From: Rheinheimera mangrovi
Lineage (GTDB): Bacteria; Pseudomonadota; Gammaproteobacteria; Enterobacterales; Alteromonadaceae
Direction: 5' to 3'
Length of the DNA: 64,000 nt
NCBI RefSeq assembly: GCF_003990335.1
Contig: NZ_CP034683.1
Location: 448,501-512,500, forward strand
Shown here: piece after piece, positions 3,882 through 58,052 of the stretch
How the letters are laid out: each line of letters opens with the position of its first letter
Numbering within the stretch: the first letter of the stretch is position 1
The notes under the pieces: generated by a model
Databases searched by the model: none
What the model was told of the DNA's origin: nothing
The model's input: the letters and a program-made list of their open reading frames with translations, nothing else
Made by a program: the position numbers and the translations under genes

Positions 3882-4086
3882 TTTGATTGTGGGTATTGTC
3901 TAGGACTCTTGAGTTTATTGCACAAAGACTTAGTTTGATTGCGCTATCCTTTGTGACTCTATACCGTAGAGGCCGCAACAGAATCTTTTAGATTAAATTG
4001 AGGCAAAGCTTACCTATCAAAGCATAGTTTATTCCATAAGTTGCGTAAGAATACGACGATCTAACCAGTGTCCAACTCAACCAAGC

Positions 4087-44886: not shown

Positions 44887-44895
44887 ATAGTTAGG

Positions 44896-44936
44896 TCAGA
44901 GTCAAATTTATAGCTGTAGCTTTAATTTGGCTCTGA
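44896..44936. terminator. Hairpin after the RND operon
   Basis: The stem TCAGAGTCAAATT/AATTTGGCTCTGA (one U-G pair) is followed by a T-rich stretch. It is likely the terminator of the efflux operon, or a dispersed palindrome. Confidence 0.55.
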
Positions 44937-44946
44937 TTTAATGAAT

Positions 44947-44960
44947 TGATAGCGCTATCA
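44947..44960. promoter_or_regulatory. LacI-family operator 1 (TonB receptor)
   Basis: A perfect 14-bp palindrome, TGATAGCGCTATCA, with the central GCGC typical of LacI-family half-site junctions. It matches two other sites in the window (see 45102 and 51210). Confidence 0.7.
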
Positions 44961-45101
44961 TTTTTGATTTTTTTCCTTCTCACCTGCCTGCTTGCTGAAA
45001 ACTCAAACAACAATTGCCTATTATTTCGGCTGTTGCCTCGTTCGTATTCTGTCGTAAAAGATCCGGATCCCAGCTTATTTTCACAAAAAAGATCTAAATA
45101 A

Positions 45102-45115
45102 TGGTTGCGCAATCA
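45102..45115. promoter_or_regulatory. LacI-family operator 2 (TonB receptor)
   Basis: TGGTTGCGCAATCA followed by TTTATCTGA. The site before gluconokinase differs by one base in the core and has the same flank. It lies about 200 bases upstream of the TonB receptor start. Confidence 0.7.
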
Positions 45116-45310
45116 TTTATCTGAGGCTAATTTAACGCCCAGGCTTAGCCTTGGTATGAAAAACAAGCGGAAGAAATCAATTCAAACAGCAATTCCGAGA
45201 GGATATGCCCTGGATTTCCTATCGCTTGAACTGATACCAAATAAAAAAAATCAACAGGTGTTAGCGCTGTCATGCTGACAAAAACATCCAGACAGGATAG
45301 GGGATTCATA

Positions 45311-47773
45311 GTGAAAGTTTTAAAATTAAAACCGGCGTATTTACTCACCACTCTGGCACTCTGCAGCGCTTTTGGTGTGGCTGCACAAGTGGCTGAAAGC
45401 ACAAAGAGCAGCGATGGCAAAGATGATGAAGGCCGTGCTATTGAAGTGATTCAAATCAGCGCGACCAAAAGGGTAACCACCTTACGTGAAACCCCACTGG
45501 CAGTAACAGCCTTTGACCAGAAAACTCTGGACGAAAACCATGTGGCACAACTGGATGATTTGCAGGGCATAGTTCCAAGTTTACAAATTGCGCAAAACGG
45601 CACCCAAAATACCCCTATGGTGTATGTGCGTGGTATTGGTTCTTCTGACCAAACCGAAAGTGGTGACCCTGCCGTCGCTTTCCATATAGATGGTGTCTAT
45701 TCAGCCCGCTCGCAGGGCGCCTCTGCCTTGATGTTTGATTTGGAAGGCGCTGAAATTTTACGTGGCCCACAAGGCACTTTATTCGGCCGTAATGCCACTG
45801 GTGGTGTAGTGAACTTACACACTGCCAAAGCCCGTCTGGATGGTTTTGATGCCAACGCCGAAATCACTTTAGGCAACTACGACCGTCGTGCTATGCGTGG
45901 TATGGTCAATATTCCATTAAGCGATACTTTAGCTGTGCGTGTTGCTGCTGCTGTGGACCAATCTGAAGGTGTGGTTGATTTCCTGCCAGGTTCAGCTATG
46001 GGTGAAAAATACGGTTCTACCGATCTGGCTGCTGCGCGTTTCAGTGCTTTTTACCAGCCGTCAGACAAGTTTGATTTAACCTTCTCCTACGAAAACTTTA
46101 CCGACAATGGCACTGGTAATATCCCAACCATCAGCGGTGGTTCGGATCGCAGCTCTTATGTACAAGAGCCAGGTTTTAACGACGCAACCAGCGATAGCTT
46201 CCGTACCAGAGCCAACTACAACTTTGACTCGGGCCTGCAATTGTCTTACATAGGCGGTTACACAGATACGTCTCGTGTTTCGGTATGGGACAGAACCTGG
46301 AGCCTGACCAAGTATGAATGGGGTGGTTGTGTGGAATGTACCCACGAAGCCACTCAGCACGAATTACAGTTTAAAAATGACGACGCTGAACGTTTACAGT
46401 GGATGGTGGGTTACTTCTACTTCAAAGAAAACAACAGCACTAATTTTGACATAGTGCACCCTGATGTTGATTACGAAGGTGGTACTACCCCAAATAAAAA
46501 CTTATGGTCCACTTACCGTCAGCCTGACCGTGGTTTAGAGTCCAACAGTATTTATGCTCAGTCGACTTACAAGCTGACTGATGACTGGCGTGTAAGCGCT
46601 GGCTTACGTTACACCAACGATAAACGTTGGGACAAAGGTGGCCGTAACATCATGTGTCCTGATGTAAAACGTACTGAAGTGATGGACCCTAATCAGGACA
46701 ACCTGGGGTACATGGATCCGGAAGGCATCCTCAATGGTCTTGGCCCGAACAAAAACCTGGTGCAACCTGGTCAATGTTGGGTTGATACCTACAACGACAC
46801 CAGCCCGGAGTGGAGCAAAACGACAGGTATGGCTCGTGTTGAATGGGACATGACAGACGATGTGATGTTCTACAGCTCCTACGCCACTGGCTTTAAGTCC
46901 GGTACTATTCAGGATGGCGGTAAATATACGGGCACTGGTCCATTCACCCAGGCTGACCTGGATGCCATTATCGCTGGCAACAATAACGAAGCTGCGGGAA
47001 CTGCCGCTTACGTAGCACCTGAAGAAAACAGCAGTATTGAACTGGGTATGAAAGGTTTATTCCTGGATGGCACCTTGCAGTTATTTGCTGCACTGTTCAG
47101 TACTGAATACACAGACTTACAGGTGACCAGTAACGTGGTCACCAACACTGGCGCTGACTTGCTGCGTAAAACTAACGCCGGTAAAGCCACTATTAATGGT
47201 CTGGAATTAGAAGCCCGTTGGTTAGTGATTGAAAATGGCGAGTTAAGTGGTTCTATGTCTGTACTGGATGCAACTTACGATGACTTCCTGACCACAGATT
47301 CTAAATATGGCCGTGATGGTTTAGCTTTTAACCCGTCTGCAGGTAACCCTGCTTTACCTAACCTGCTGGATTTCAGCGGTAACCATTTAGTGATGGCTCC
47401 GGAATTCTCAGCTTCTGTGAATTACGAACATTTTGTTGGTCTGGAAAGCGGCGCTACGTTAAAGCCAAGAATTCGTGTGGGTTACACCAGCGAAGTATGG
47501 TTTGACCCGGCCAACCGTGGTGACAGACCTGAAGGTTTCAAAAATCTGCCTTATGCTGCTGATATCGACCGTCAGGATGCCTATACCAAAGTGGACTTAA
47601 GCCTGACGTTTGAACCTTCAGAAGGCAACTGGTCTACAGAAGCTTTTGTGAATAACGTCACTGACCGCGATATTAAGAGCGATCAAGGCCGTACTCACGG
47701 TGACGCAGTACCTAACTTTATGTGGCAATCACCACGTACCTTTGGTGTGCGTTTTAACGTAGCTTTTGAATAA
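45311..47773 (+). CDS. TonB-dependent outer-membrane receptor
   Basis: 820 residues from the GTG at 45311 (GGGGA 6 bases before). It starts with a clean signal peptide (KVLKLKPAYLLTTLALCSAFGVAAQ on split reading); an ATG 13 codons earlier is the longer option. A plug domain (RETPLAVTAFDQ, VRGIGSSDQTESGDP, LRGPQGTLFGRNATGG) is followed by a 22-strand-type barrel ending FGVRFNVAFE. The family imports siderophores or oligosaccharides. Operators shared with the gluconokinase operon suggest a sugar acid such as cellobionate. Confidence 0.93.
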   Translation: MKVLKLKPAYLLTTLALCSAFGVAAQVAESTKSSDGKDDEGRAIEVIQISATKRVTTLRETPLAVTAFDQKTLDENHVAQLDDLQGIVPSLQIAQNGTQNTPMVYVRGIGSSDQTESGDPAVAFHIDGVYSARSQGASALMFDLEGAEILRGPQGTLFGRNATGGVVNLHTAKARLDGFDANAEITLGNYDRRAMRGMVNIPLSDTLAVRVAAAVDQSEGVVDFLPGSAMGEKYGSTDLAAARFSAFYQPSDKFDLTFSYENFTDNGTGNIPTISGGSDRSSYVQEPGFNDATSDSFRTRANYNFDSGLQLSYIGGYTDTSRVSVWDRTWSLTKYEWGGCVECTHEATQHELQFKNDDAERLQWMVGYFYFKENNSTNFDIVHPDVDYEGGTTPNKNLWSTYRQPDRGLESNSIYAQSTYKLTDDWRVSAGLRYTNDKRWDKGGRNIMCPDVKRTEVMDPNQDNLGYMDPEGILNGLGPNKNLVQPGQCWVDTYNDTSPEWSKTTGMARVEWDMTDDVMFYSSYATGFKSGTIQDGGKYTGTGPFTQADLDAIIAGNNNEAAGTAAYVAPEENSSIELGMKGLFLDGTLQLFAALFSTEYTDLQVTSNVVTNTGADLLRKTNAGKATINGLELEARWLVIENGELSGSMSVLDATYDDFLTTDSKYGRDGLAFNPSAGNPALPNLLDFSGNHLVMAPEFSASVNYEHFVGLESGATLKPRIRVGYTSEVWFDPANRGDRPEGFKNLPYAADIDRQDAYTKVDLSLTFEPSEGNWSTEAFVNNVTDRDIKSDQGRTHGDAVPNFMWQSPRTFGVRFNVAFE

Positions 47774-47807
47774 TTCGTCCAACATTATTGATGTTTTACC
47801 CTTGTCT

Positions 47808-47829
47808 CCCGGACTTGTGCGAGTCCGGG
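47808..47829 (+). other. Hairpin after the TonB receptor gene
   Basis: CCCGGACT/AGTCCGGG with a 6-base loop, 24 bases upstream of the stronger terminator. It has no T-run. Confidence 0.45.
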
Positions 47830-47852
47830 TCCTCCCGGTAATTGGGGGTATC

Positions 47853-47879
47853 AGTACCAGCTTCGGCTGGTACTTTTTT
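47853..47879 (+). terminator. Intrinsic terminator of the TonB receptor gene
   Basis: The stem AGTACCAGC/GCTGGTACT is closed by a stable TTCG tetraloop and followed by six Ts. From here to 48090 there is AT-rich DNA with no recognised gene; it should contain the promoter of the interrupted gene that follows. Confidence 0.92.
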
Positions 47880-48090
47880 ATGATGTTTTGTTATTAGTAC
47901 AACTGTGCCATTCTTTTCGCCGTTCAATAAACCGCAGTTAATGCGTGTCGCCCTGCAGCTGTTCCTTTTTTTGTTGACGCCTCATTCCTCGGTAAGGTAT
48001 GTTGATGTTGTTACTGTGTTTTTAAGTAATAGTACATTAGTTTACATAATTTAAACTAATGTTATTTAGCTTCAGTTCAGAGGATGAAAA

Positions 48091-48224
48091 ATGTATAAAA
48101 TATACATTTTTTTTACATTATTAGTTTTTGCAAGTTGTAAAGTGTCGGCAGATACCGTAAAGATCAATAATGTTGGTATTCTAGAGTCTGGTGATGGAGG
48201 GATATATACTTTCTTTCCCTTGAA
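48091..48224 (+). pseudogene. Secreted Cys-rich poly-Gly protein, 5' fragment (interrupted by IS)
   Basis: The ATG at 48091 has GAGGA before it and begins a signal peptide (MYKIYIFFTLLVFASCKVSA; a VFASC lipobox is possible). It then reads DTVKINNVGILESGDGGIY before an IS3 element cuts it. Joining base 48224 to 49449 restores one open frame of 179 codons with the 3' fragment. The family is not recognised. Confidence 0.65.
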
Positions 48225-48238
48225 TCGACCAGACTTTC

Positions 48239-49072
48239 TTAGACAGTTTGTTGCCTCATAAAGTACTGCTTTTCAAATACAGCAGGAGGCAGATCACCAC
48301 TGTACCCATGTTTGCGTTTGATGTTATAGAACATTTCGATGTAATTAAAGATATCCGACTTCGCTTCTTCTCTGGTTACATACACTTTTCGCCTGACCCG
48401 CTCTCGCTTTAACAACTGGAAAAAGCTTTCTGCACACGCATTGTCATGGCAATTACCGCGACGACTCATACTGGCTTTGAGGTTGTGTTCTTTTAAAAAG
48501 CCTTGCCATTCGTAGCCAGTAAACTGGCTGCCTTGGTCGGAATGAACAAGGACTTCCTGCTTGGGTTTTCTGCGCCAGATCGCCATTAGTAACGCTTTGA
48601 GCACCACATCCGCATCCATTCTCGGCTGCATCGACCAACCAACAACCTGACGCGAGAACAAGTCCAGTACGACCGCCAGATACAGAAAGCCTTCATGGGT
48701 TTTGATGTAAGTTATATCGGTGACCCAAACCCGATTCGGTTCTGTGACATCAAACTCGCGTTGCAACACATTCTGCGCCACCACCGCAGGCTTGCCATGG
48801 TAGTGGCCTTTCCGTCTGCGGTATCCCACTTGCGCACTCAGCGTTTCCTGCTTCATCAGCCTGGCCACGCGGTTTTTACTGCATCGTTCGCCTAAATCTT
48901 TCAAATCGCTGGTGACTTTGCGATAGCCATAAACACAGCCACTTTCCAGCCACGAATGCTTAATTAACCCTAACAAGCGGTTGTCTTCCAAGGTCCGGCC
49001 AGAATGTGGCTGTTTTAACCATGCATACAACCCGCTGCGCTGAATATTCAGCACCTGACACATCAGTTGCAC
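48239..49072 (-). CDS. IS3-family transposase OrfB
   Basis: 277 residues with an HTH_21 segment, then an rve integrase core. The DDE residues are in VTDITYIKT, VHSDQGSQFT and CAESFFQLLK. The protein is normally made as an OrfAB fusion: the -1 frame from the end of orfA reads straight into it (KEKYTFIKSRLAHYPVQ) through an A-rich stretch near 49110. The listed start is a GTG. It is intact, so the element may still be active. Confidence 0.92.
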   Translation of the reverse strand: MQLMCQVLNIQRSGLYAWLKQPHSGRTLEDNRLLGLIKHSWLESGCVYGYRKVTSDLKDLGERCSKNRVARLMKQETLSAQVGYRRRKGHYHGKPAVVAQNVLQREFDVTEPNRVWVTDITYIKTHEGFLYLAVVLDLFSRQVVGWSMQPRMDADVVLKALLMAIWRRKPKQEVLVHSDQGSQFTGYEWQGFLKEHNLKASMSRRGNCHDNACAESFFQLLKRERVRRKVYVTREEAKSDIFNYIEMFYNIKRKHGYSGDLPPAVFEKQYFMRQQTV

Positions 49073-49095
49073 CGGATAGTGAGCCAGTCTGGATT

Positions 49096-49389
49096 TTATG
49101 AACGTGTACTTTTCTTTGACTCCACGGCAAAGTACACGGCGGCCTCCTTTAATATATCGCGTTCCATCGTCACCCGTTTCAGTTGTTTCTCTAACTCACG
49201 GATCTTGGCTTCCTGCTCAGAAACCTGTTGATAATGTTCGCTGTTGCTGCCGTATTTTTTAAGCCACAGGTAAAGACTGTTTGTAGAGATGTCTAAACGC
49301 TTCGCAACGCTCGCCACAGAATGGCCGCGCTCCGTAATTTGCTTGACTGCTTCAATCTTAAATTCTTCTGGAAACCGTTTTGTCGTCAT
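49096..49389 (-). CDS. IS3-family transposase OrfA
   Basis: 97 residues with an HTH_Tnp_1 domain (PEEFKIEAVKQITERGHSVASVAKRL) and a leucine-zipper-like C-terminus (EQEAKIRELEKQLKRVTMERDILKEA). It binds the IS ends and precedes OrfB with a frameshift overlap. Confidence 0.92.
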   Translation of the reverse strand: MTTKRFPEEFKIEAVKQITERGHSVASVAKRLDISTNSLYLWLKKYGSNSEHYQQVSEQEAKIRELEKQLKRVTMERDILKEAAVYFAVESKKSTRS

Positions 49390-49448
49390 TTGTCCCCCTT
49401 AACACACTGCATTGTAATGCTATTTTGTGTCTAGGAAACTCTGGTCGA

Positions 49449-49854
<406 letters not shown>

Positions 49855-49874
49855 TTTGACAGGAATCTTCACTA

Positions 49875-50078
49875 ATGAAAGCTTTTATTATGAGATTTAT
49901 CCATCCGGTTTATCGAGAGCAACCTGGTGTGTTGGCCTTAATGATTTTCACTGTGTTGTGCTTTGGGTATCAATGCTATCTAACAGACCAATTTTTCGCC
50001 TTTGTTGGGGCCATAGTGTATGCGTCGTTGGCTATTCGCTGTGTCTATCACTATATCGAGAAAAAAACAGAGAAATAA
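49875..50078 (+). CDS. Small two-helix membrane protein (67 aa)
   Basis: It starts MKAFIMRFIHPVYREQPG and has two hydrophobic segments (VLALMIFTVLCFGYQC and FFAFVGAIVYASLAIRCVY). AGGAA lies 9 bases before the ATG and the stop of the poly-Gly gene is 20 bases upstream, so they were probably co-transcribed. Unknown family. A membrane partner or immunity-like protein for the secreted peptide is possible but unproven. Confidence 0.6.
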   Translation: MKAFIMRFIHPVYREQPGVLALMIFTVLCFGYQCYLTDQFFAFVGAIVYASLAIRCVYHYIEKKTEK

Positions 50079-50150
50079 CTTTAATTGTATAGTTGCTCAG
50101 GTTGAATTTCGAACTCCATCTGAGCACTTTTAGCACCGAATTTGCTTGTG

Positions 50151-51152
50151 TCAGGTTGAAGCCCTTTCCACTATGCGATAACCCACATCTATAGGTGGCT
50201 TATGGGTTTTGTCCTCGCCCGATGCTGTCATCAGTAATTCAACCGCTTGCTGGCCCATCTCAAAACGAGGTGAGGCGACGCTGGTAATGGCGGGTTCGAC
50301 CAAAGCTGAAGCTTCTAAATCGTTAAAACCACAAATGGCGATATCTGCCGGCACTTTCAGGTTCATCCGCTTGGTTTCAAACAAAGCTCCCAAAGCCAAA
50401 TCGTCGTTACAGCAGAACACCGCATCACACTGCCCTTGAGATTCTGCCATCACAGCCTGCAATAACTGACCGCCTAAACGTATCGAGGAAGACTGAGTGG
50501 TGGTGACTACATAACTCTGACAAGGCTGCTTAAAATCCGCTATCGCCTTTTTAAAACCCGCTAAACGTTGCTGGGTACGGGTATCCATGCGGGCGCCCAG
50601 AAAGCCTAGTTTGCGATAGCCTTTTTGCAGCAAGTGGTTAGTGATATCCACCCCGGCATTAAAGTGCGAAAAGCCAATATTCATATCAATAGGGCAGTCG
50701 CTGAGTTCCATCAGCTGCACTATAGGAATGCCGGATTGTTGCAGTAATTTACGGGCATAATCGGTTTGATCTGTGCCGGTTAAAATAAAACCTTCAGGCG
50801 ACTGACTGAGTAAAGTGGCGATCAGTTTTTCTTCTTCCAAAGGCGAATAATGGCAATCCCCCAATACCACCTGAAGATGATGTTGTTTCACTGCACTATA
50901 AATACCCTGCAAAACATCATTAAAAACTATGTTAGATAATGATGGAATGATAACCGCAATCACACCTGAACGACGGGAAGCCAATGCACTGGCCGCATGG
51001 TTACGGATATAACCAATTTCATGCACAGCCTGTTCAACTTTTGCCCGCAGTTTTTCTGAGACTTTATCAGGATTACTAAGCACGCGGGACACAGTAATAG
51101 CACTGACCCCTGCTACTTTAGCCACATCTTTCAGGTTAGGTTTTTTGTTCAT
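50151..51152 (-). CDS. LacI-family repressor (GntR-like)
   Basis: 333 residues from the Met of MNKKPNLKDVAKVAGVS; ten codons upstream are also open. The N-terminal LacI HTH is LKDVAKVAGVSAITVSRVLSN, followed by a periplasmic-binding-like effector domain. Effector by analogy with GntR: gluconate or a related acid. It is divergent from gluconokinase; the shared operator lies in the 125-base gap. It is the likely reader of the three TGNTNGCGCNATCA sites. Confidence 0.92.
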   Translation of the reverse strand: MNKKPNLKDVAKVAGVSAITVSRVLSNPDKVSEKLRAKVEQAVHEIGYIRNHAASALASRRSGVIAVIIPSLSNIVFNDVLQGIYSAVKQHHLQVVLGDCHYSPLEEEKLIATLLSQSPEGFILTGTDQTDYARKLLQQSGIPIVQLMELSDCPIDMNIGFSHFNAGVDITNHLLQKGYRKLGFLGARMDTRTQQRLAGFKKAIADFKQPCQSYVVTTTQSSSIRLGGQLLQAVMAESQGQCDAVFCCNDDLALGALFETKRMNLKVPADIAICGFNDLEASALVEPAITSVASPRFEMGQQAVELLMTASGEDKTHKPPIDVGYRIVERAST

Positions 51153-51209
51153 CACACCATTCTCATTATTTTTGAAAAACAATAACTGAAAGCTCAGTTT
51201 GAGTCAAAA

Positions 51210-51223
51210 TGGTTGCGCTATCA
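51210..51223. promoter_or_regulatory. LacI-family operator 3 (gluconokinase operon)
   Basis: TGGTTGCGCTATCA sits between the divergent repressor and gluconokinase genes and is followed by TTTTATCTGA. It is one base away from operator 2 in the core. Confidence 0.75.
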
Positions 51224-51277
51224 TTTTATCTGAATTAAGCTGAGGCCACATTTTTATGGAAGGTGTGATCGTATCTG

Positions 51278-51829
51278 ATGCAACAGGATCTAACAGCTCA
51301 GAAGCAGGCAAGCAATACAACACAATGCCAAAGTCTGATCATTATGGGCGTGGCCGGCAGCGGCAAATCTACGCTGGCTTTGCGCCTTGCAGAGCAACTG
51401 GGTTGGCATTATCTGGAAGGTGATGATTTTCACAGCCTTGAAGCCAAACAGATGATGGCGTCAGGCACGCCTATTACCAGTGAAATGCGTGACCAATGGG
51501 TCGGCCGTTTATGTGCAGCTTTACAAGAGTGCGCAACAAAACAACTTGCAGTGGTATTAAGTTATTCAGGTTTAATCCGCAAGCATCGTGAGCGCATTCG
51601 TCAGGCGGCTTCCAACCCACAGTTCATTTATTTACAAGGCAGCGCTGAATTGCTGGCCGAACGCCTGGCGCAGCGGCAAAACCATTTTATGCCTGTGTCT
51701 ATGCTGCAAAGCCAGCTGGCTACTATGGAATCGGTAGAGCAGGAAGCTGATGTGCTGTGTCTGGATATCAGTCAAAGCGTCAACGAACTGATGCTGCAAG
51801 TCATTTTAAAAATAGAGCAACGACTATAA
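51278..51829 (+). CDS. gntK: Gluconokinase
   Basis: 183 residues. P-loop GVAGSGKST at about 25-33, then YLEGDDFHS and FIYLQGSAELLAERLAQR, the GntK family blocks. It phosphorylates gluconate to 6-phosphogluconate. First gene of the operon under operator 3, and the only one that fixes the pathway product (gluconate). Confidence 0.93.
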   Translation: MQQDLTAQKQASNTTQCQSLIIMGVAGSGKSTLALRLAEQLGWHYLEGDDFHSLEAKQMMASGTPITSEMRDQWVGRLCAALQECATKQLAVVLSYSGLIRKHRERIRQAASNPQFIYLQGSAELLAERLAQRQNHFMPVSMLQSQLATMESVEQEADVLCLDISQSVNELMLQVILKIEQRL

Positions 51830-51915
51830 CAAGTGATCACGACTGGCCATCATTGGCTGGCGCATGGTCAATAAATCTTTAAATCAAAACAACAAAACAA
51901 CGACAGGGTGACAAA

Positions 51916-53313
51916 GTGACAACAGAAACTGCGGTACCTCAAGACAAGCTAAAGCTGCGCGAAAAGCTCGGTTACGGCGTCGGCGATATGGGTTTTAATT
52001 TCTATTGGGCTAATATTTCGGCCTTTTTATTGATTTTTTATACCGATGTATTTGGTATCTCAGCGGCTGCCGCTGGCACCATGATGCTGATCACTAAAAT
52101 CATCGATGCGTTTACCGACCCTATGATGGGCGCTTTAGCGGACAGAACCAAAAGCCGTTTTGGTAAATTCCGGCCTTATTTATTGTGGCTCGCTTTACCT
52201 CTTGCTGGTGCTGGTGTGTTGACCTACAGCACGCCGGATTTAGGCCCAGGCGGTAAACTGGTATGGGCTTATTGCACTTATAGCCTGCTGATGCTGACGT
52301 ACACAGCTATCAATATTCCTTATTCAGCCTTGTCTGGTGTGATGACCCGTAATAGCCAGGACAGAACTACTTTAGTCAGCTTCCGTTTTATCGGTGGTTT
52401 TACCGGCGGTATTCTGGTGACTTATTTAACCCCTAAGCTGGTGGTGTTGTTAGGCCAAGGCGATGAAATCTTAGGCTGGCAGCTGACTATGGGCGTCTTT
52501 GGTATAGCTGCTGCTTTGCTGTTTTTATTCACCTTTGCCAGCACCAAAGAGCGTATTCAGCCTGTCAGTGAAACCAACAATGCCGTGAAACAGGATTTGC
52601 TCGATTTAAAAAACAACAAACCCTGGCTGGTGCTGTTCAGTTTGGCGCTGATCATTATGATCACTATTACCATGCGCGCCAGCAGTGGTACTTATTACTT
52701 TAAATATTATGTAATGCGGCCTGAGCTGGTCGGCGAGTTTTTATCTTCTTATATGTTTGCTTTGGCTTTAGGTGCTGCATCTACGCCATTAATGACCAAG
52801 TTTATGGATAAAAAGCCATTGATGATGCTGCTCATGAGCCTGGCCGGATTATTCTCTATCAGCTTGTTTTTTGTGCCAGCTGATCAGGTGGGTTTAATTT
52901 TTGCCATCAACCTGGCTATAGGTTTTGTATTAGGGCCTAAATCGCCACTGGCTTTTTCTATGTATGCCGATACCGCAGATTACAATGAATGGCGCACTGG
53001 CCGTCGTGCCACAGCTATGACCTTTTCAGCCGCTACCTTTTCGCAAAAACTCGGCGGTGCTATTGCCTCAGCTGTAATTGGCTGGTTATTGGCATTGATA
53101 GGTTATGTCGCCAACACTGAACAAAGTGCGGGCTCACAAATGGGTATTTTACTCATGGTTTCAGTGATCCCTGGCTTAGTGGCCTTTTTAGCTGCTTTTG
53201 TCATGCGCTTTTACCATTTAGATGAAAAACAATTGCTGACCATTCAACAGGAATTGGATCAGCGCAAAGCAGCACCTTTTAAACAAACTGCAGTAGTCGG
53301 AGTGTCGGAGTAA
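51916..53313 (+). CDS. GPH-type MFS sugar/cation symporter
   Basis: 465 residues with twelve helices. GYGVGDMGFNFYW and DAFTDPMMGALADRTKSRFGKFRPY are the glycoside-pentoside-hexuronide family hallmarks. GTG start with AGGGTGA five bases before. It probably carries the disaccharide acid across the inner membrane. It is followed by the phosphorylase after two bases. Confidence 0.9.
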   Translation: MTTETAVPQDKLKLREKLGYGVGDMGFNFYWANISAFLLIFYTDVFGISAAAAGTMMLITKIIDAFTDPMMGALADRTKSRFGKFRPYLLWLALPLAGAGVLTYSTPDLGPGGKLVWAYCTYSLLMLTYTAINIPYSALSGVMTRNSQDRTTLVSFRFIGGFTGGILVTYLTPKLVVLLGQGDEILGWQLTMGVFGIAAALLFLFTFASTKERIQPVSETNNAVKQDLLDLKNNKPWLVLFSLALIIMITITMRASSGTYYFKYYVMRPELVGEFLSSYMFALALGAASTPLMTKFMDKKPLMMLLMSLAGLFSISLFFVPADQVGLIFAINLAIGFVLGPKSPLAFSMYADTADYNEWRTGRRATAMTFSAATFSQKLGGAIASAVIGWLLALIGYVANTEQSAGSQMGILLMVSVIPGLVAFLAAFVMRFYHLDEKQLLTIQQELDQRKAAPFKQTAVVGVSE

Positions 53314-53315
53314 CT

Positions 53316-55691
53316 ATGAAGAAGTTGATGCAAGCCACAGAAAACGGCCAGCGTTATGAATTGTACAGCGCCACTGCGATGCCACAGGCTGCGGGCTTTT
53401 TATGGAACAAGGTGATGATGATCCAGCAAAACTGCCGTGGTTATGCCACAGCGCAGTTTATGCAGCCAGAACCAGCTAAATATGCTCATGCGCCGAACTT
53501 AGAAGCCAAAACTTTTATGCAGCCGGAGCAGCCGTATTACGCTCATCATCCGGGCCGTTTTGTGTATATCAAAGATGAAAACAGCGGTGAAATCTGGTCT
53601 GTGCCTTACGAGCCGGTGCGCAAAGAAGCAAAGAACTTTGTGTTTTCAGCAGGCCAGTCGGATATCCGCTGGCAGCTGACACTGGACTGTGGTTTAACTG
53701 TGGAATGGTTATTAACCTTAACTCCGGATCAACCGCTGGAGTTATGGCAGCTGACGGTACGCAACGATTCAAATCAGAACCGTTCTTTAAGCCTGTATCC
53801 GTATTTCCCGGTTGGTTATATGTCCTGGATGAACCAGTCTGGCCGTTATGATGCCGATTTAAAAGCCATTATCTGCTCTTCAGTGACGCCTTATCAAAAG
53901 TACCCTGATTACTTTAAAAACAAGTTCTTAAAAGACAAAACCTTCTTATTGGCCGAGCGCACACCGGATTTCTGGGAAGTGAACCAGCAAGCATTCGAAG
54001 GGCAGGGCGGTTTACATGCGCCTTCAGCTGTACAACAGCCGTTTTTAGCTTGTGGTGATTCAGACTACGAAACGCCAGCTTGTGTGATGCAATACAGAGC
54101 TTCTTTAGCTGCAGGCCAGTCAGAGCAGTATCGTTTTGTGTTTGGGCCGGCTTATGACAAAGCTGAAGTAGCACAAATTCGACAGCAGGTGTTTGGCACA
54201 TCAGAGAGCTTCGGCCAGATCCAACAGGCTTATGCCGCTTATGTTGCGCAAGCTGTGCCTTGCTTAGAAATAGATACGCCGGATCAGGAGCTGAATAACT
54301 ATGTCAACCACTGGCTGGCGCGTCAGGTGTATTACCATGGCGACGTCAACCGCTTAACCACAGATCCACAAACCCGTAATTATCTGCAGGACAATATGGG
54401 TATGAGCTATCTGGCTCCTGCTGTGGCACGTCAGGCCTTTTTAACAGCTTTATCGCAGCAGCATCTATCGGGTGAAATGCCAGACGGTATCCTGCTGCAC
54501 AAAGACGCCGAACTGAAATACATCAATCAGGTGCCTCATACCGACCAATGTGTCTGGTTACCTGTCTGTATCAGCGCTTATCTGGCAGAAACCAACGATT
54601 ACGCGCTGTTAAACGAAAAAGTCGCCTTCAAAGATTCTGCCGAACAACATACGGTGGCTGAGCATATTCACCGTGCTATGGGCTGGTTATGGCTGAAAAA
54701 AGACGAACGTTGCTTAAGTTACATTGAGCAGGGCGACTGGTGTGACCCAATGAATATGGTGGGTTACAAAGGCAAAGGTGTGTCGGGCTGGTTAAGTCTG
54801 GCAGCAGCTTATGCGCTGAAGGTGTGGGCGCAAATTTGCCGTGATGCAGGCCGTACTGAGCATGTGGCTTTATACGAAGAACAAGCAGCCGCTTTTAATG
54901 CCGCAGTGAACCAATATTTATGGGACGGTAACTGGTACGGCCGTGGTATCACAGACGACAATGTCGTCTTTGGTATCAGCAAAGACATCGAAGGCCGCAT
55001 TTACCTGAACCCACAAAGCTGGGCTTTATTAAGTGGTGCCGCCAACAGCGAACAACAGCAACAGCTGTTAAAAGCAGTAGAGCAGCAATTGCATACGCCT
55101 TATGGCCCACAAATGCTGGCACCTGCTTATACAGCTATGCGTGAAGACGTGGGCCGTGTCACGCAAAAGTATCCGGGCTCGGCAGAAAACGGTTCAGTCT
55201 ATAACCACGCTGCAGCCTTCTACCTCTTTGCTTTGTATCAGGTTAATCAGGCCGACAAAGCTTATCAGGTATTAAAACAAATGCTGCCGTCGGACGATCC
55301 ACAGGATCAGTTACAACGGGGTCAGTTGCCGGTATTTATTCCAAATTATTACCGTGGCGCATACCAGACCTTACCGCGCACTGCAGGCCGCTCCAGCCAG
55401 TTATTTAATACAGGCACAGTGCACTGGGTGTATCGTTGTTTGGTCGAAGGTTTGTTTGGTGTGAAGGGCGACCAGCATGGTTTAACCATAGCGCCGCAAT
55501 TGCCGGCCAGCTGGAACAAGGCGTCCGTATTACGCCGTTTTCGTGGCGCAGACTTCCATATCCGTTTTGAGCGGGTTGCTGATGTCAAAGCGCCAACACT
55601 CTGGCTGGATGAAGTGCAACAGGAAGAGTTAGCGGTGCGCACTATCACTGCAGGCCAAAGTTATCAGTTGCTGGTGCAATTGCCGCTGTAA
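53316..55691 (+). CDS. GH94 phosphorylase, probably cellobionic acid phosphorylase
   Basis: 791 residues, close to the known cellobionate phosphorylases. Domains: N-terminal beta-sandwich (1-270), helical linker, (alpha/alpha)6 barrel (about 330-700) and C-terminal sheet. The putative general acid is Asp474 in QGDWCDPMNM. Arg614 and Lys618, four residues apart, could be the carboxylate-binding pair of that subfamily; this is from memory and unaligned. The gluconokinase neighbour argues for cellobionate (glucose-1-phosphate plus gluconate) over cellobiose or chitobiose. Confidence 0.8.
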   Translation: MKKLMQATENGQRYELYSATAMPQAAGFLWNKVMMIQQNCRGYATAQFMQPEPAKYAHAPNLEAKTFMQPEQPYYAHHPGRFVYIKDENSGEIWSVPYEPVRKEAKNFVFSAGQSDIRWQLTLDCGLTVEWLLTLTPDQPLELWQLTVRNDSNQNRSLSLYPYFPVGYMSWMNQSGRYDADLKAIICSSVTPYQKYPDYFKNKFLKDKTFLLAERTPDFWEVNQQAFEGQGGLHAPSAVQQPFLACGDSDYETPACVMQYRASLAAGQSEQYRFVFGPAYDKAEVAQIRQQVFGTSESFGQIQQAYAAYVAQAVPCLEIDTPDQELNNYVNHWLARQVYYHGDVNRLTTDPQTRNYLQDNMGMSYLAPAVARQAFLTALSQQHLSGEMPDGILLHKDAELKYINQVPHTDQCVWLPVCISAYLAETNDYALLNEKVAFKDSAEQHTVAEHIHRAMGWLWLKKDERCLSYIEQGDWCDPMNMVGYKGKGVSGWLSLAAAYALKVWAQICRDAGRTEHVALYEEQAAAFNAAVNQYLWDGNWYGRGITDDNVVFGISKDIEGRIYLNPQSWALLSGAANSEQQQQLLKAVEQQLHTPYGPQMLAPAYTAMREDVGRVTQKYPGSAENGSVYNHAAAFYLFALYQVNQADKAYQVLKQMLPSDDPQDQLQRGQLPVFIPNYYRGAYQTLPRTAGRSSQLFNTGTVHWVYRCLVEGLFGVKGDQHGLTIAPQLPASWNKASVLRRFRGADFHIRFERVADVKAPTLWLDEVQQEELAVRTITAGQSYQLLVQLPL

Positions 55692-55740
55692 GGCCTTGGG
55701 CGAAGAGCAAAAGGCAAAGGGCTAAATAAAAGGAATAGCT

Positions 55741-56733
55741 ATGATCCGTATAGGTTTGTTAGGTGCAGCACGCATTGCCGATCGGGCTATTATTCAGCCC
55801 GCTGCCTTGCGCTCTGATGTAGTCATTGCAGCAGTGGCTGCATCCTCTCTGGAAAAGGCTCAGGCTTTTGCCCAGCAGTTTGATATAGAACTGGCATTAG
55901 GCAGCTATGACGAGCTGCTGGCCCGTGATGATATCGACCTGATTTACAACGCTTTACCACCTTCTATGCATGCAGAGTGGTCGATTAAAGCTTTGCAACA
56001 AGGTAAGCATGTGTTGTGCGAAAAGCCTTTTGCCATGGATGCTACAGAAGCGCAAGCCATGGTCGCGGCCGCAGAAAGCAGTGGCCGTTTACTGATTGAA
56101 GGGTATCACTACCGCTTTCATCCGGTTTTTGCCGAAGTTCAGCGTTTAGTGGCCAGTGGCGAACTTGGCACTATTCACACAGTACGCAGCAATTTTTCAG
56201 TGCGTATTGCCGAAACACCAGGTTCGTTGCGTCATAACGCGCCTTTAGGTGGTGGCGCTTTAATGGATTTAGGTTGCTACCCACTGCACTGGTTACGCTC
56301 TTTATTCGCCAGCACACCGCAAATTTTATGGGCCGACGCTATTTGCCCTAAACCTCAACTCGATAGCAGCTTCGAGCTTCGTCTACAGTTCGAAAACGGC
56401 CCGCTGTGTTATGTCGGCTGCGCTATGAGCGAACATTTAAGCCGCCACCACGATGCGTCTTTCTATCTCGAAGGTGACAAAGCTCAGCTGGAAGTGCTGA
56501 ACCTGGTCGCCCCACATCAAGGCCACAAGTTATGCTTGACCAAAAACGGCGAGGCTCATGACTATCAAATCAACGGCGACTCCACCTACGACCATCAACT
56601 GGCGCACGTCGTCGCCTGCATCAAAGGCGAAAGCAAACCGCTGACAGGTGGCCGCGACGCAATAGATCAGATGCAACTGATTGATGATGCTTATATAGCG
56701 GCGGGGTTATTGCCGCGGGGGCTTTGTAAGTAG
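55741..56733 (+). CDS. Gfo/Idh/MocA-family oxidoreductase
   Basis: 330 residues. The Rossmann start is IGLLGAARIADRAI; the signature EKPFAMDATEAQAM is near residue 97, and the C-terminal domain has LGGGALMDLGCYPLHWL. NAD(P)-dependent, probably acting on a sugar or sugar acid. It ends the operon; a diverged copy of its 3' end recurs after hipB. Confidence 0.88.
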   Translation: MIRIGLLGAARIADRAIIQPAALRSDVVIAAVAASSLEKAQAFAQQFDIELALGSYDELLARDDIDLIYNALPPSMHAEWSIKALQQGKHVLCEKPFAMDATEAQAMVAAAESSGRLLIEGYHYRFHPVFAEVQRLVASGELGTIHTVRSNFSVRIAETPGSLRHNAPLGGGALMDLGCYPLHWLRSLFASTPQILWADAICPKPQLDSSFELRLQFENGPLCYVGCAMSEHLSRHHDASFYLEGDKAQLEVLNLVAPHQGHKLCLTKNGEAHDYQINGDSTYDHQLAHVVACIKGESKPLTGGRDAIDQMQLIDDAYIAAGLLPRGLCK

Positions 56734-56813: not shown

Positions 56814-58052
56814 CTAATCGAGTATAAAGCAGCCCCTCAATAGCTCTCTTTCTTCTTTGCGGATACCAGCTTGTTGGGCAAGGCTTTCCCACTTTGACAC
56901 GGCCTTTAACAATCTTTGATGGATAGCCTTTGCTTTATCAGCATTAACGTGAAAATACTCCGCAACTTCAAATGCCAAGTCTACAAAGAGCGCGTTACTC
57001 ACATCATCAATATTAAGGTGTAAGCCGGTGGCATATAACATGGGGTTGATATCGTAGGCGGGAGATAGCCGCCAGCCTGTGGGCTCCAGAATGAATCCGT
57101 GATTTCTCAGATGATCATCACAATTAGAGACCATGATGTTAAACAGCATTCTTGTCCAAAGTTGTTCAAGGTCTTGCTGAGTGTTGGAGCCGTGCTGTAT
57201 CAGAAACTCAGCCAGTTCTAAGTAACTTGCACCATCATCCTGACCATCAAAGTACTCAAGCTGAGTCATTGCAGAACTGAAGTGAAGCCGCTTGCCAGAC
57301 TCGGTGCGGTCGAACCTTTTTGTTAAAAAAATATGATGACTGCCAATGGCTTCAACTTTGGACTCTGCCATTTCGATGCCTGACTCAATGGCCATTTGGT
57401 AAACAATGAACTCCCATAAGCCAATATCGTAATCGTCATGACGACTGGGGAACTTGACCAACCACAAACTGTTATCATGATTTCTTATTGACGCCTTTGG
57501 CCTGGCACCACCTAAAGATGAACCTGGTGAGATCAGCATATTGAGCCATTTCAGATAATCTGGATTATCTAAATCTGGTGCTTCTTCTATTTTATGTGCG
57601 GCTTGTTGCAGCTCGGGCAGGCTGGTTATTGGGGGGGCAGACAGCTCATGGCTATCGTCTAAAAATGGACCTGTTGGTGATGTGCGAAAGCGCAGTGCAC
57701 CCATGCGGAATGAGTCATGAACACCCAGTAAGTAATCTGTTTCGTACAGAGTTCTTGTTCGTCGCTTCTCTTGTCGGGCGATCACCGCTTCTCTGCGTTG
57801 CATCAGCAACCGTCCCCAACGATCAGGGCATGAGTCGAGAAATGTTTTGAAGTTTTTATCGCCCTGCGCATGTTGCTCTCCAACGAATAACTTTAGAGAG
57901 GGATCGATCTGACGAACATAGTCAGAGGCCAGCCACTTATCATCATAACTAAAGCTGAAATGCTCTTTGCCTCTGATTTCTGTGGAGCGTAAAGTACCGA
58001 CCAATATAGGGTCAGTTGACTCAGTCCAATCAGCGTAAACGTAGATTTCCAT
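56814..58052 (-). CDS. hipA: HipA-family toxin kinase
   Basis: 412 residues. The Ser/Thr kinase-like fold carries GSSLGGARPKAS (phosphate-binding loop with candidate autophosphorylated Ser), NIMVSNCDDHLRNHGF (catalytic loop) and SPAYDINP (metal-binding). HipA kinases phosphorylate glutamyl-tRNA synthetase or other targets and cause growth arrest. hipB lies 12 bases upstream. It is intact. Confidence 0.92.
   Translation of the reverse strand: MEIYVYADWTESTDPILVGTLRSTEIRGKEHFSFSYDDKWLASDYVRQIDPSLKLFVGEQHAQGDKNFKTFLDSCPDRWGRLLMQRREAVIARQEKRRTRTLYETDYLLGVHDSFRMGALRFRTSPTGPFLDDSHELSAPPITSLPELQQAAHKIEEAPDLDNPDYLKWLNMLISPGSSLGGARPKASIRNHDNSLWLVKFPSRHDDYDIGLWEFIVYQMAIESGIEMAESKVEAIGSHHIFLTKRFDRTESGKRLHFSSAMTQLEYFDGQDDGASYLELAEFLIQHGSNTQQDLEQLWTRMLFNIMVSNCDDHLRNHGFILEPTGWRLSPAYDINPMLYATGLHLNIDDVSNALFVDLAFEVAEYFHVNADKAKAIHQRLLKAVSKWESLAQQAGIRKEERELLRGCFILD

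What the first reader, a model, noticed from the sequence alone, without database searches (positions are those of the whole stretch)
44887..56733. Regulon for an aldobionate, probably cellobionate: TonB receptor plus gntK-MFS-GH94-Gfo/Idh
Seen: divergent LacI-family repressor, gluconokinase, GPH symporter, GH94 phosphorylase and Gfo/Idh oxidoreductase in one run, and a TonB receptor behind the same operator motif. Known: GH94 includes cellobionic acid phosphorylases that yield glucose-1-phosphate and gluconate. Inference: gluconokinase makes sense only if the phosphorylase releases gluconate, so the imported sugar is an oxidised disaccharide such as cellobionate, the product of LPMOs or cellobiose dehydrogenases. 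A receptor and transporter dedicated to it would be an oxidised-cellulose scavenging system.
Basis: partly seen in the sequence, partly recalled or inferred. Interest (0 to 1): 0.75.

Follow-up and report, generated by a model that had tools for sequence, protein, structure and literature searches.

The report
Cellobionate uptake and breakdown regulon
This is a set of co-regulated bacterial genes that very probably imports cellobionate, an oxidised two-sugar fragment of cellulose, and splits it into glucose phosphate and gluconate; the key enzyme is known, but its bacterial importers and control circuit were not described in the papers I could search.

Summary
The GH94 protein matches the solved cellobionic acid phosphorylase (CBAP, 4zle) along its whole length at 1174 bits; the best GH94 of another specificity gives 189. 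Carboxylate-pocket residues Q194, R614 and K618 are invariant in all 16 aligned sequences, while a cellobiose phosphorylase has R, E and Y. The operator TGRTWGCGCWAYCA lies at operon genes in 24 of 24 unique loci with this GntR-type repressor, against 2 of 57 without it; both exceptions fit the model. Here it precedes the TonB receptor and gntK. New: all 81 CBAP-linked symporters have a lysine (K342) that 0 of 12 comparison symporters have; a weaker operator precedes a gluconolactonase gene elsewhere in the genome. Corrections: the genome has no AA10 LPMO, and CBAP is not linked to AA10 in the family (12 of 57 versus 28 of 139), so the substrate is scavenged or made otherwise. Only 9 of 16 CBAP-bearing genomes of the genus have the receptor. 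The Gfo/Idh enzyme stays unassigned. All functions are predicted from sequence; nothing was assayed.

The parts
44947..44960 (.). operator TGATAGCGCTATCA upstream of the TonB receptor
   Evidence: matrix score 27.5
45102..45115 (.). operator TGGTTGCGCAATCA upstream of the TonB receptor
   Evidence: matrix score 29.3
45259..45272 (.). weak operator-like site TGTTAGCGCTGTCA at the start of the TonB receptor gene
   Evidence: matrix score only 10.1
45272..47773 (+). TonB-dependent outer-membrane receptor, proposed receptor for cellobionate or oxidised cello-oligosaccharides (real start may be GTG at 45311, by eye)
   Evidence: same family next to the phosphorylase in 14 of 136 loci
50151..51182 (-). 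LacI-family repressor of the GntR (gluconate) type; start may be ATG at 51152 (by eye)
   Evidence: passes the NCBIfam GntR cut-off, 407.7 versus 400 bits; closest solved structure 3h5o 'GntR'
51210..51223 (.). operator TGGTTGCGCTATCA between lacI and gntK
   Evidence: matrix score 30.7; a site lies 3-98 bases before the called lacI start in 29 of 29 loci listed (24 unique)
51278..51829 (+). gluconokinase GntK
   Evidence: TIGR01313 144 bits, cut-off 113.75
51916..53313 (+). GPH (MelB-type) symporter, proposed cellobionate importer; K342 codon at 52939-52941
   Evidence: TIGR00792 over the cut-off; K342 in 81 of 81 linked proteins and 0 of 12 others
53316..55691 (+). GH94 cellobionic acid phosphorylase; R614 codon 55155-55157, K618 codon 55167-55169
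   Evidence: 1174 bits to 4zle over residues 6-790; Q194, R614, K618 invariant in 16 sequences
55741..56733 (+). Gfo/Idh/MocA oxidoreductase of unknown substrate, last gene of the run
   Evidence: next to the phosphorylase in 25 of 136 loci: Rheinheimera relatives and three gammaproteobacterial MAGs at 30-37% identity

Best explanation
The locus is a cellobionate-utilisation regulon in a Rheinheimera relative. Proposed route: C1-oxidised cellulose fragments reach the cell as lactones or acids; a gluconolactonase with a signal-like N-terminus (encoded elsewhere in the genome, weak operator) opens the lactone; the TonB receptor brings the acid across the outer membrane; the GPH symporter carries cellobionate across the inner membrane, K342 perhaps meeting the carboxylate; the GH94 enzyme splits it with phosphate into glucose-1-phosphate and gluconate; GntK makes 6-phosphogluconate, which enters the Entner-Doudoroff path (edd is present). 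A LacI-family repressor of the GntR type binds TGRTWGCGCWAYCA upstream of lacI/gntK and of the receptor gene, and is probably released by gluconate or a product of it. Shown by sequence: gene identities, phosphorylase orthology, pocket residues, shared conserved operator. Inferred: substrate of the receptor and symporter, ligand and binding of the repressor, place of the lactonase, origin of the cellobionate.
For: GH94: 1174 bits to 4zle, listed as SdCBAP in a review table; the other GH94 structures score 189 bits or fewer; a cellobiose phosphorylase from a relative scores the other way round (1165 to 3qde, 152 to 4zle), is 21% identical to the window protein and has R, E, Y at Q194, R614, K618. 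Operator: 59 of 60 sites with at most one mismatch lie between 400 bp upstream and 60 bp inside an operon gene, in 24 of 24 unique loci with the repressor (20 single-base shuffles: mean 1.2 sites), against 2 of 57 GPH-phosphorylase loci without it. The two are L178, whose contig ends 100 bp after the phosphorylase, where related L148 and L174 have the repressor, and Rugamonas L188, where a 41% LacI, operator, gntK, TonB receptor, GPH, GH94 and a GH3 follow in one run. The receptor has a site upstream in 13 of 13 repressor loci that carry it (L056 and L121 are the same stretch). Symporter: K342 in 81 of 81 versus 0 of 12. Receptor: in 9 of 16 phosphorylase-positive and 0 of 6 negative genomes of the genus. 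Repressor: no paralogue above 31% identity in the genome. edd: 1000 bits. Cello-oligosaccharide context in relatives: GH3 and, in L061, a cellobiose phosphorylase near the phosphorylase gene.
Against: No AA10 LPMO in this genome, one weak GH5-type hit, and no link between phosphorylase and AA10 across 196 genomes of the family (Fisher p 1.0), so the link to oxidised cellulose rests on the enzyme's specificity. Seven of 16 phosphorylase-positive genomes of the genus lack the receptor. 17 of the 24 repressor loci are Rheinheimera relatives, so they are not independent. The lactonase operator scores 17.1, at the low end of the training sites (15.7-31.2) and within the range of the other one-mismatch genome sites (9.1-17.7), and is absent at the lactonase of two phosphorylase-positive genomes. 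Nothing was assayed.
Confidence: 0.85

Rival explanations
1. The same phosphorylase pathway, but the cellobionate is made by the cell itself: cellobiose is oxidised in the periplasm by a dehydrogenase and imported as the acid, so no oxidised cellulose is scavenged.
For: The genome has a GSDH-family sugar dehydrogenase (446 bits) with a signal-like N-terminus by eye (L191), a gluconolactonase with a weak operator, and no AA10 LPMO. A review reports maltobionic acid production by a periplasmic glucose-fructose oxidoreductase/gluconolactonase complex of Zymomonas (PMC10239384, passages).
Against: No operator with at most one mismatch lies near the dehydrogenase gene, which is 1.3 Mb away; its substrate and PQQ supply were not tested. 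The only PQQ_2-domain protein found is 397 aa long, the size of BamB (the name is my inference).
Confidence: 0.25
2. The regulon is mainly a gluconate regulon: the repressor and GntK serve gluconate, and the phosphorylase and receptor are passengers or accept another aldobionate or a glucosyl-uronic acid.
For: The repressor passes the GntR model; in Marinimicrobium (L174) a GntP gluconate permease follows gntK. Acceptance of other acceptors such as glucuronate by CBAPs is recalled, not tested.
Against: In the window no gluconate permease is in the run; the GPH symporter, not GntP, is the regular partner of the phosphorylase (80 of 136 loci), and the receptor shares the operator.
Confidence: 0.12
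3. The GH94 enzyme is an ordinary cellobiose, laminaribiose or chitobiose phosphorylase.
For: Same Pfam family.
Against: 189 bits or fewer to all those structures versus 1174 to CBAP; carboxylate residues present.
Confidence: 0.02

Closest known systems
Cellobionic acid phosphorylase of Saccharophagus degradans (Sde_0906, 4zle-4zli) and Xanthomonas XCC4077
   Same: Full-length GH94 match to the Saccharophagus enzyme with the same pocket residues
   Different: I saw those reports only through a review table; the papers themselves were not held, so I cannot say what they show of gene neighbourhoods. Here the enzyme sits in a defined regulon with an outer-membrane receptor
Neurospora cellobionate pathway CBT-1 / CAP / GnK (PMC4537572, passages)
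   Same: Same logic: acid-specific MFS importer, phosphorylase, gluconokinase
   Different: Different transporter family (GPH here), bacterial repressor and TonB receptor
Carbohydrate utilisation loci with TonB-dependent receptors (e.g. the GH149 type II clusters of Alteromonadales, PMC5827456, passages)
   Same: TonB receptor next to a phosphorylase and a regulator
   Different: Substrate here is an oxidised disaccharide; gluconokinase and GntR-type control
E. coli YagG (putative D-xylonate transporter, yagEFG-yagH)
   Same: Highest-scoring NCBIfam model for the symporter (421 bits, below its own cut-off of 610) and also beside sugar-acid genes
   Different: 34% identity, threonine in place of K342

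Membership tests
GH94 cellobionic acid phosphorylase | closest to characterised CBAP over its full length | tested here: met
   1174 bits to 4zle, residues 6-790
GH94 cellobionic acid phosphorylase | carboxylate-binding residues Q190, R609, K613 of SdCBAP (residues recalled; paper not held) | tested here: met
   Q194, R614, K618 in the window, invariant in 16 sequences; R, E, Y in the one cellobiose phosphorylase aligned
GH94 cellobionic acid phosphorylase | phosphorolysis of cellobionate to Glc1P and gluconate | not testable with these tools
   needs an assay
LacI-family GntR (gluconate) repressor | passes the curated equivalog model | tested here: met
   407.7 versus cut-off 400
LacI-family GntR (gluconate) repressor | binds gluconate or 6-phosphogluconate | not testable with these tools
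   needs a binding assay
Regulon of this repressor | conserved palindromic operator upstream of member genes across species | tested here: met
   24 of 24 unique loci at operon genes; upstream of the receptor in 13 of 13 repressor loci that carry it, one stretch counted twice
Regulon of this repressor | the gluconolactonase is a member | tested here: inconclusive
   TGGTTGCGCTAACA before 12 of 19 orthologues, a different one-mismatch site in two, none in five; matrix score within the range of other one-mismatch genome sites
GPH symporter family | TIGR00792 above the cut-off | tested here: met
   400.6 versus 231.35
Cellobionate symporter | transport of cellobionate | not testable with these tools
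   the K342 signature is suggestive only
TonB-dependent receptor | plug and barrel domains | tested here: met
   PF07715 and PF00593
Organism that makes cellobionate with its own LPMO | own AA10 LPMO | tested here: not met
   0 matches in the own genome, one contig, 100% complete

The most novel reading that the evidence does not exclude
The regulon handles the whole range of LPMO products: the lactonase opens C1 lactones, and the Gfo/Idh enzyme, which resembles sugar 3-ketoreductases as well as C1 aldose oxidoreductases, reduces the 4-keto end of doubly oxidised (C1/C4) fragments back to glucose so that the phosphorylase can use them. This would make bacteria without LPMOs specialised consumers of other organisms' oxidised cellulose.
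Probability: 0.08. Interest if true: 0.8.

Novelty: new variant of a known kind. Interest (0 to 1): 0.5.

Why it matters
Cellobionate is a soluble product of LPMOs and cellobiose dehydrogenases, yet how it enters E. coli was called unknown in 2015 (PMC4403981, passages). This gives testable candidates: a GPH subfamily with a diagnostic lysine, a TonB receptor, and a repressor with a known operator that might serve as a cellobionate or gluconate sensor. It also shows that in this family the trait is spread independently of AA10 LPMOs, so oxidised cellulose may feed organisms that did not make it.

Tried and rejected
Considered and rejected: ordinary cellobiose, chitobiose or laminaribiose phosphorylase. 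Tested whether the phosphorylase tracks AA10 LPMOs: it does not. Looked for further regulon members among the nine one-mismatch genome sites outside the cluster: six lie inside open frames; two are intergenic without a fitting gene (window 3936 = L004, and L007); only the lactonase site (L012) lies just before a gene with a fitting function. Of the two-mismatch sites I read six: five inside open frames, one (L240) between a 268-aa and a 126-aa frame with no visible link to sugar use; the listing of two-mismatch sites was cut and the rest were not read for context, so this screen is incomplete. No tree of GH94 families was built; score comparison was used instead. No structure was predicted. 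A first guess that the gene after gntK in L148 was edd was wrong (an alpha-amylase domain protein). The Gfo/Idh substrate could not be decided. A literature search for LacI-family regulons of Alteromonadales found nothing.
Full report
Observation. The window lies in a one-contig 4.63-Mb genome; the closest records found for its GH94 are Rheinheimera strains and gammaproteobacterial MAGs at 93-97% identity (L109-L118). An IS3-family transposase (48239-49072) sits between the receptor and the repressor.

Phosphorylase. The GH94 protein matches 4zle over residues 6-790 with 1174 bits; chitobiose phosphorylase gives 189, cellobiose phosphorylase 127, laminaribiose phosphorylase 32. A review table lists 4zle as SdCBAP, Sde_0906 (PMC8950772, passages). 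Residues Q190, R609 and K613 of SdCBAP, which I recall as contacting the gluconate carboxylate (paper not held), align with Q194, R614 and K618 here, invariant in all 16 aligned sequences, the window and 15 relatives that I picked from the 30 loci. A cellobiose phosphorylase from a relative (L061) scores 1165 bits to 3qde and 152 to 4zle, is 21% identical to the window protein, and reads R, E and Y at the three positions. That relative carries both enzymes within 5 kb.

Neighbourhood. I searched 196 genomes of the family; 85 have some GH94 match, 57 a strong one (over 830 bits). Neighbourhoods of the 56 outside the window plus the 80 loci kept from 513 relatives in the named collection were compared, 136 in all, partly duplicates. 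A GPH symporter of this family was counted in 80 of 136 loci and a gluconokinase in 61 (open frames called mechanically, so these are lower bounds); the loci without a GPH are mostly Firmicutes. The TonB receptor family of the window is near the phosphorylase in 14 loci, the Gfo/Idh family in 25. In a Rugamonas MAG (L188) lacI, operator, gntK, TonB receptor, GPH, GH94 and GH3 form one run, an arrangement different from that in Rheinheimera. GH3 proteins also lie close to the phosphorylase in two other groups of relatives (one representative of each scanned).

Operator. The 14-base pattern TGRTWGCGCWAYCA was derived from the window sites and relatives. After removing loci with identical phosphorylases (136 to 129), the pattern with at most one mismatch occurs 60 times in the 24 loci whose repressor is more than 50% identical; 59 of these lie between 400 bp upstream and 60 bp inside a lacI, gntK, GPH or receptor gene, in 24 of 24 loci; 20 single-base shuffles give 1.2 sites on average. 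In 57 loci with GPH and phosphorylase but no such repressor, 2 have such a site. These are L178, whose site lies 37 bp before GPH on a contig that ends 100 bp after the phosphorylase, and L188 with its 41% LacI and a site 55 bp before gntK. Other sites in that group, such as those of L072 and L086, lie away from the operon. The pattern was partly learned from the same loci, and 17 of the 24 are Rheinheimera relatives, so the contrast between the groups and the seven loci of other genera matter more than the count. The receptor has an upstream site in 13 of 13 listed repressor loci that carry it, L056 and L121 being the same stretch. In the own genome TGRTWGCGCWATCA without mismatch occurs at three places, all in this cluster. 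On a matrix from 33 distinct relatives' sites (training scores 15.7-31.2) the window sites score 30.7 (gntK), 29.3 and 27.5 (receptor) and 10.1 (third receptor site); a further window site, at 3936, scores 17.1 and has no evident target.

Repressor. It passes the NCBIfam model for Pseudomonas GntR by a small margin (407.7 versus 400); its paralogues in the genome are at most 31% identical.

Symporter. Of 87 linked GPH frames found, 80 remained after removing identical ones and ones of odd length; with the window's own this gives 81 rows. In a screen for polar columns conserved in these and rare in others, K342 was lysine in 81 of 81; in 7 unlinked GPH proteins (six from the loci, one from the own genome, one further dropped for length) and five E. 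coli GPH proteins (YagG, UidB, YicJ, YihO, YihP) it is never lysine. By the alignment, K342 pairs with F341 of MelB, next to W342, which I recall as lining the sugar site. The 12 comparators are few, one is only 19% identical, the column was picked after the fact, and the lysine may mark a clade rather than a contact.

Lactonase. Of nine one-mismatch genome sites outside the cluster, one lies 43-56 bases before the likely start of a 332-aa SMP-30/gluconolactonase with a signal-like N-terminus by eye; nearest solved structures 3e5z and 3dr2, 'exported gluconolactonase'. All 22 genomes of the genus searched have some match, 19 an orthologue over 390 bits. TGGTTGCGCTAACA is kept before 12 of these 19; two have a different one-mismatch site (TGAAAGCGCTACCA), five have none. 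The 12 and the 2 all have the phosphorylase; of the five, two have it and three do not. The 12 are close relatives (88-100% identity), and the site's score (17.1) is in the range of the other one-mismatch sites (9.1-17.7). I give about an even chance that it belongs.

Receptor. At E 1e-150 or better it is in 9 of 22 genomes of the genus, all among the 16 with the phosphorylase; 7 with the phosphorylase lack it.

Source of the substrate. No AA10 LPMO in the genome; one PQQ_2 protein of BamB size; one GSDH; one weak GH5 hit (30 bits). Across 196 genomes AA10 is in 12 of 57 with and 28 of 139 without the phosphorylase. AA10 enzymes may act on chitin, so this is a coarse test. Either the cell scavenges cellobionate or it oxidises cellobiose itself.

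Downstream. edd is present (1000 bits, cut-off 708), so 6-phosphogluconate can enter the Entner-Doudoroff path.

Literature. Searches of the held library: 'cellobionic acid phosphorylase' 27 papers, of which I opened passages of eight and saw the rest only as a listing; with 'Saccharophagus degradans' and 'phosphorylase' 8 papers (listing); 'cellobionate' with 'TonB' 0; 'cellobionic acid' with 'TonB-dependent' 4, passages read of two, neither about such a system, two not opened; with 'gluconokinase' and 'operon' 0; 'Rheinheimera' with 'cellobionic' 0; uptake terms 54 papers, 10 listed; with 'Cellvibrio japonicus' 6, one opened. Subscription papers, among them the two founding CBAP papers, were not readable, so novelty of the gene cluster itself is not established.

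Verdict.

Noticed in passing
window 48060-49860: The IS3-family element (transposase 48239-49072 on -, with a second small frame towards about 49390 by eye) seems to lie inside a small glycine-rich reading frame between the receptor and the repressor.
   Followed up: no
window 3936-3949: An intergenic operator-like site TGATTGCGCTATCC (score 17.1) with no evident target gene.
   Followed up: partly
L053-L108 (56 Alteromonadaceae-family loci): A family whose one scanned member is a CBM9-like protein (255 aa, L061) is near the phosphorylase in 40 of 56 loci; a tryptophan-halogenase-like family is in 27 of 56 and a large TonB receptor family of another type in 23 of 56.
   Followed up: partly
window 56814-58052: HipA-family gene next to the operon; a different HipA (53% identity) lies near the same place in several relatives in the opposite direction.
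   Followed up: no
L127-L187, those titled Paenibacillus and other Firmicutes: CBAP relatives at about 60% identity without a relative of this GPH symporter or gluconokinase found nearby, so these may use other importers.
   Followed up: no
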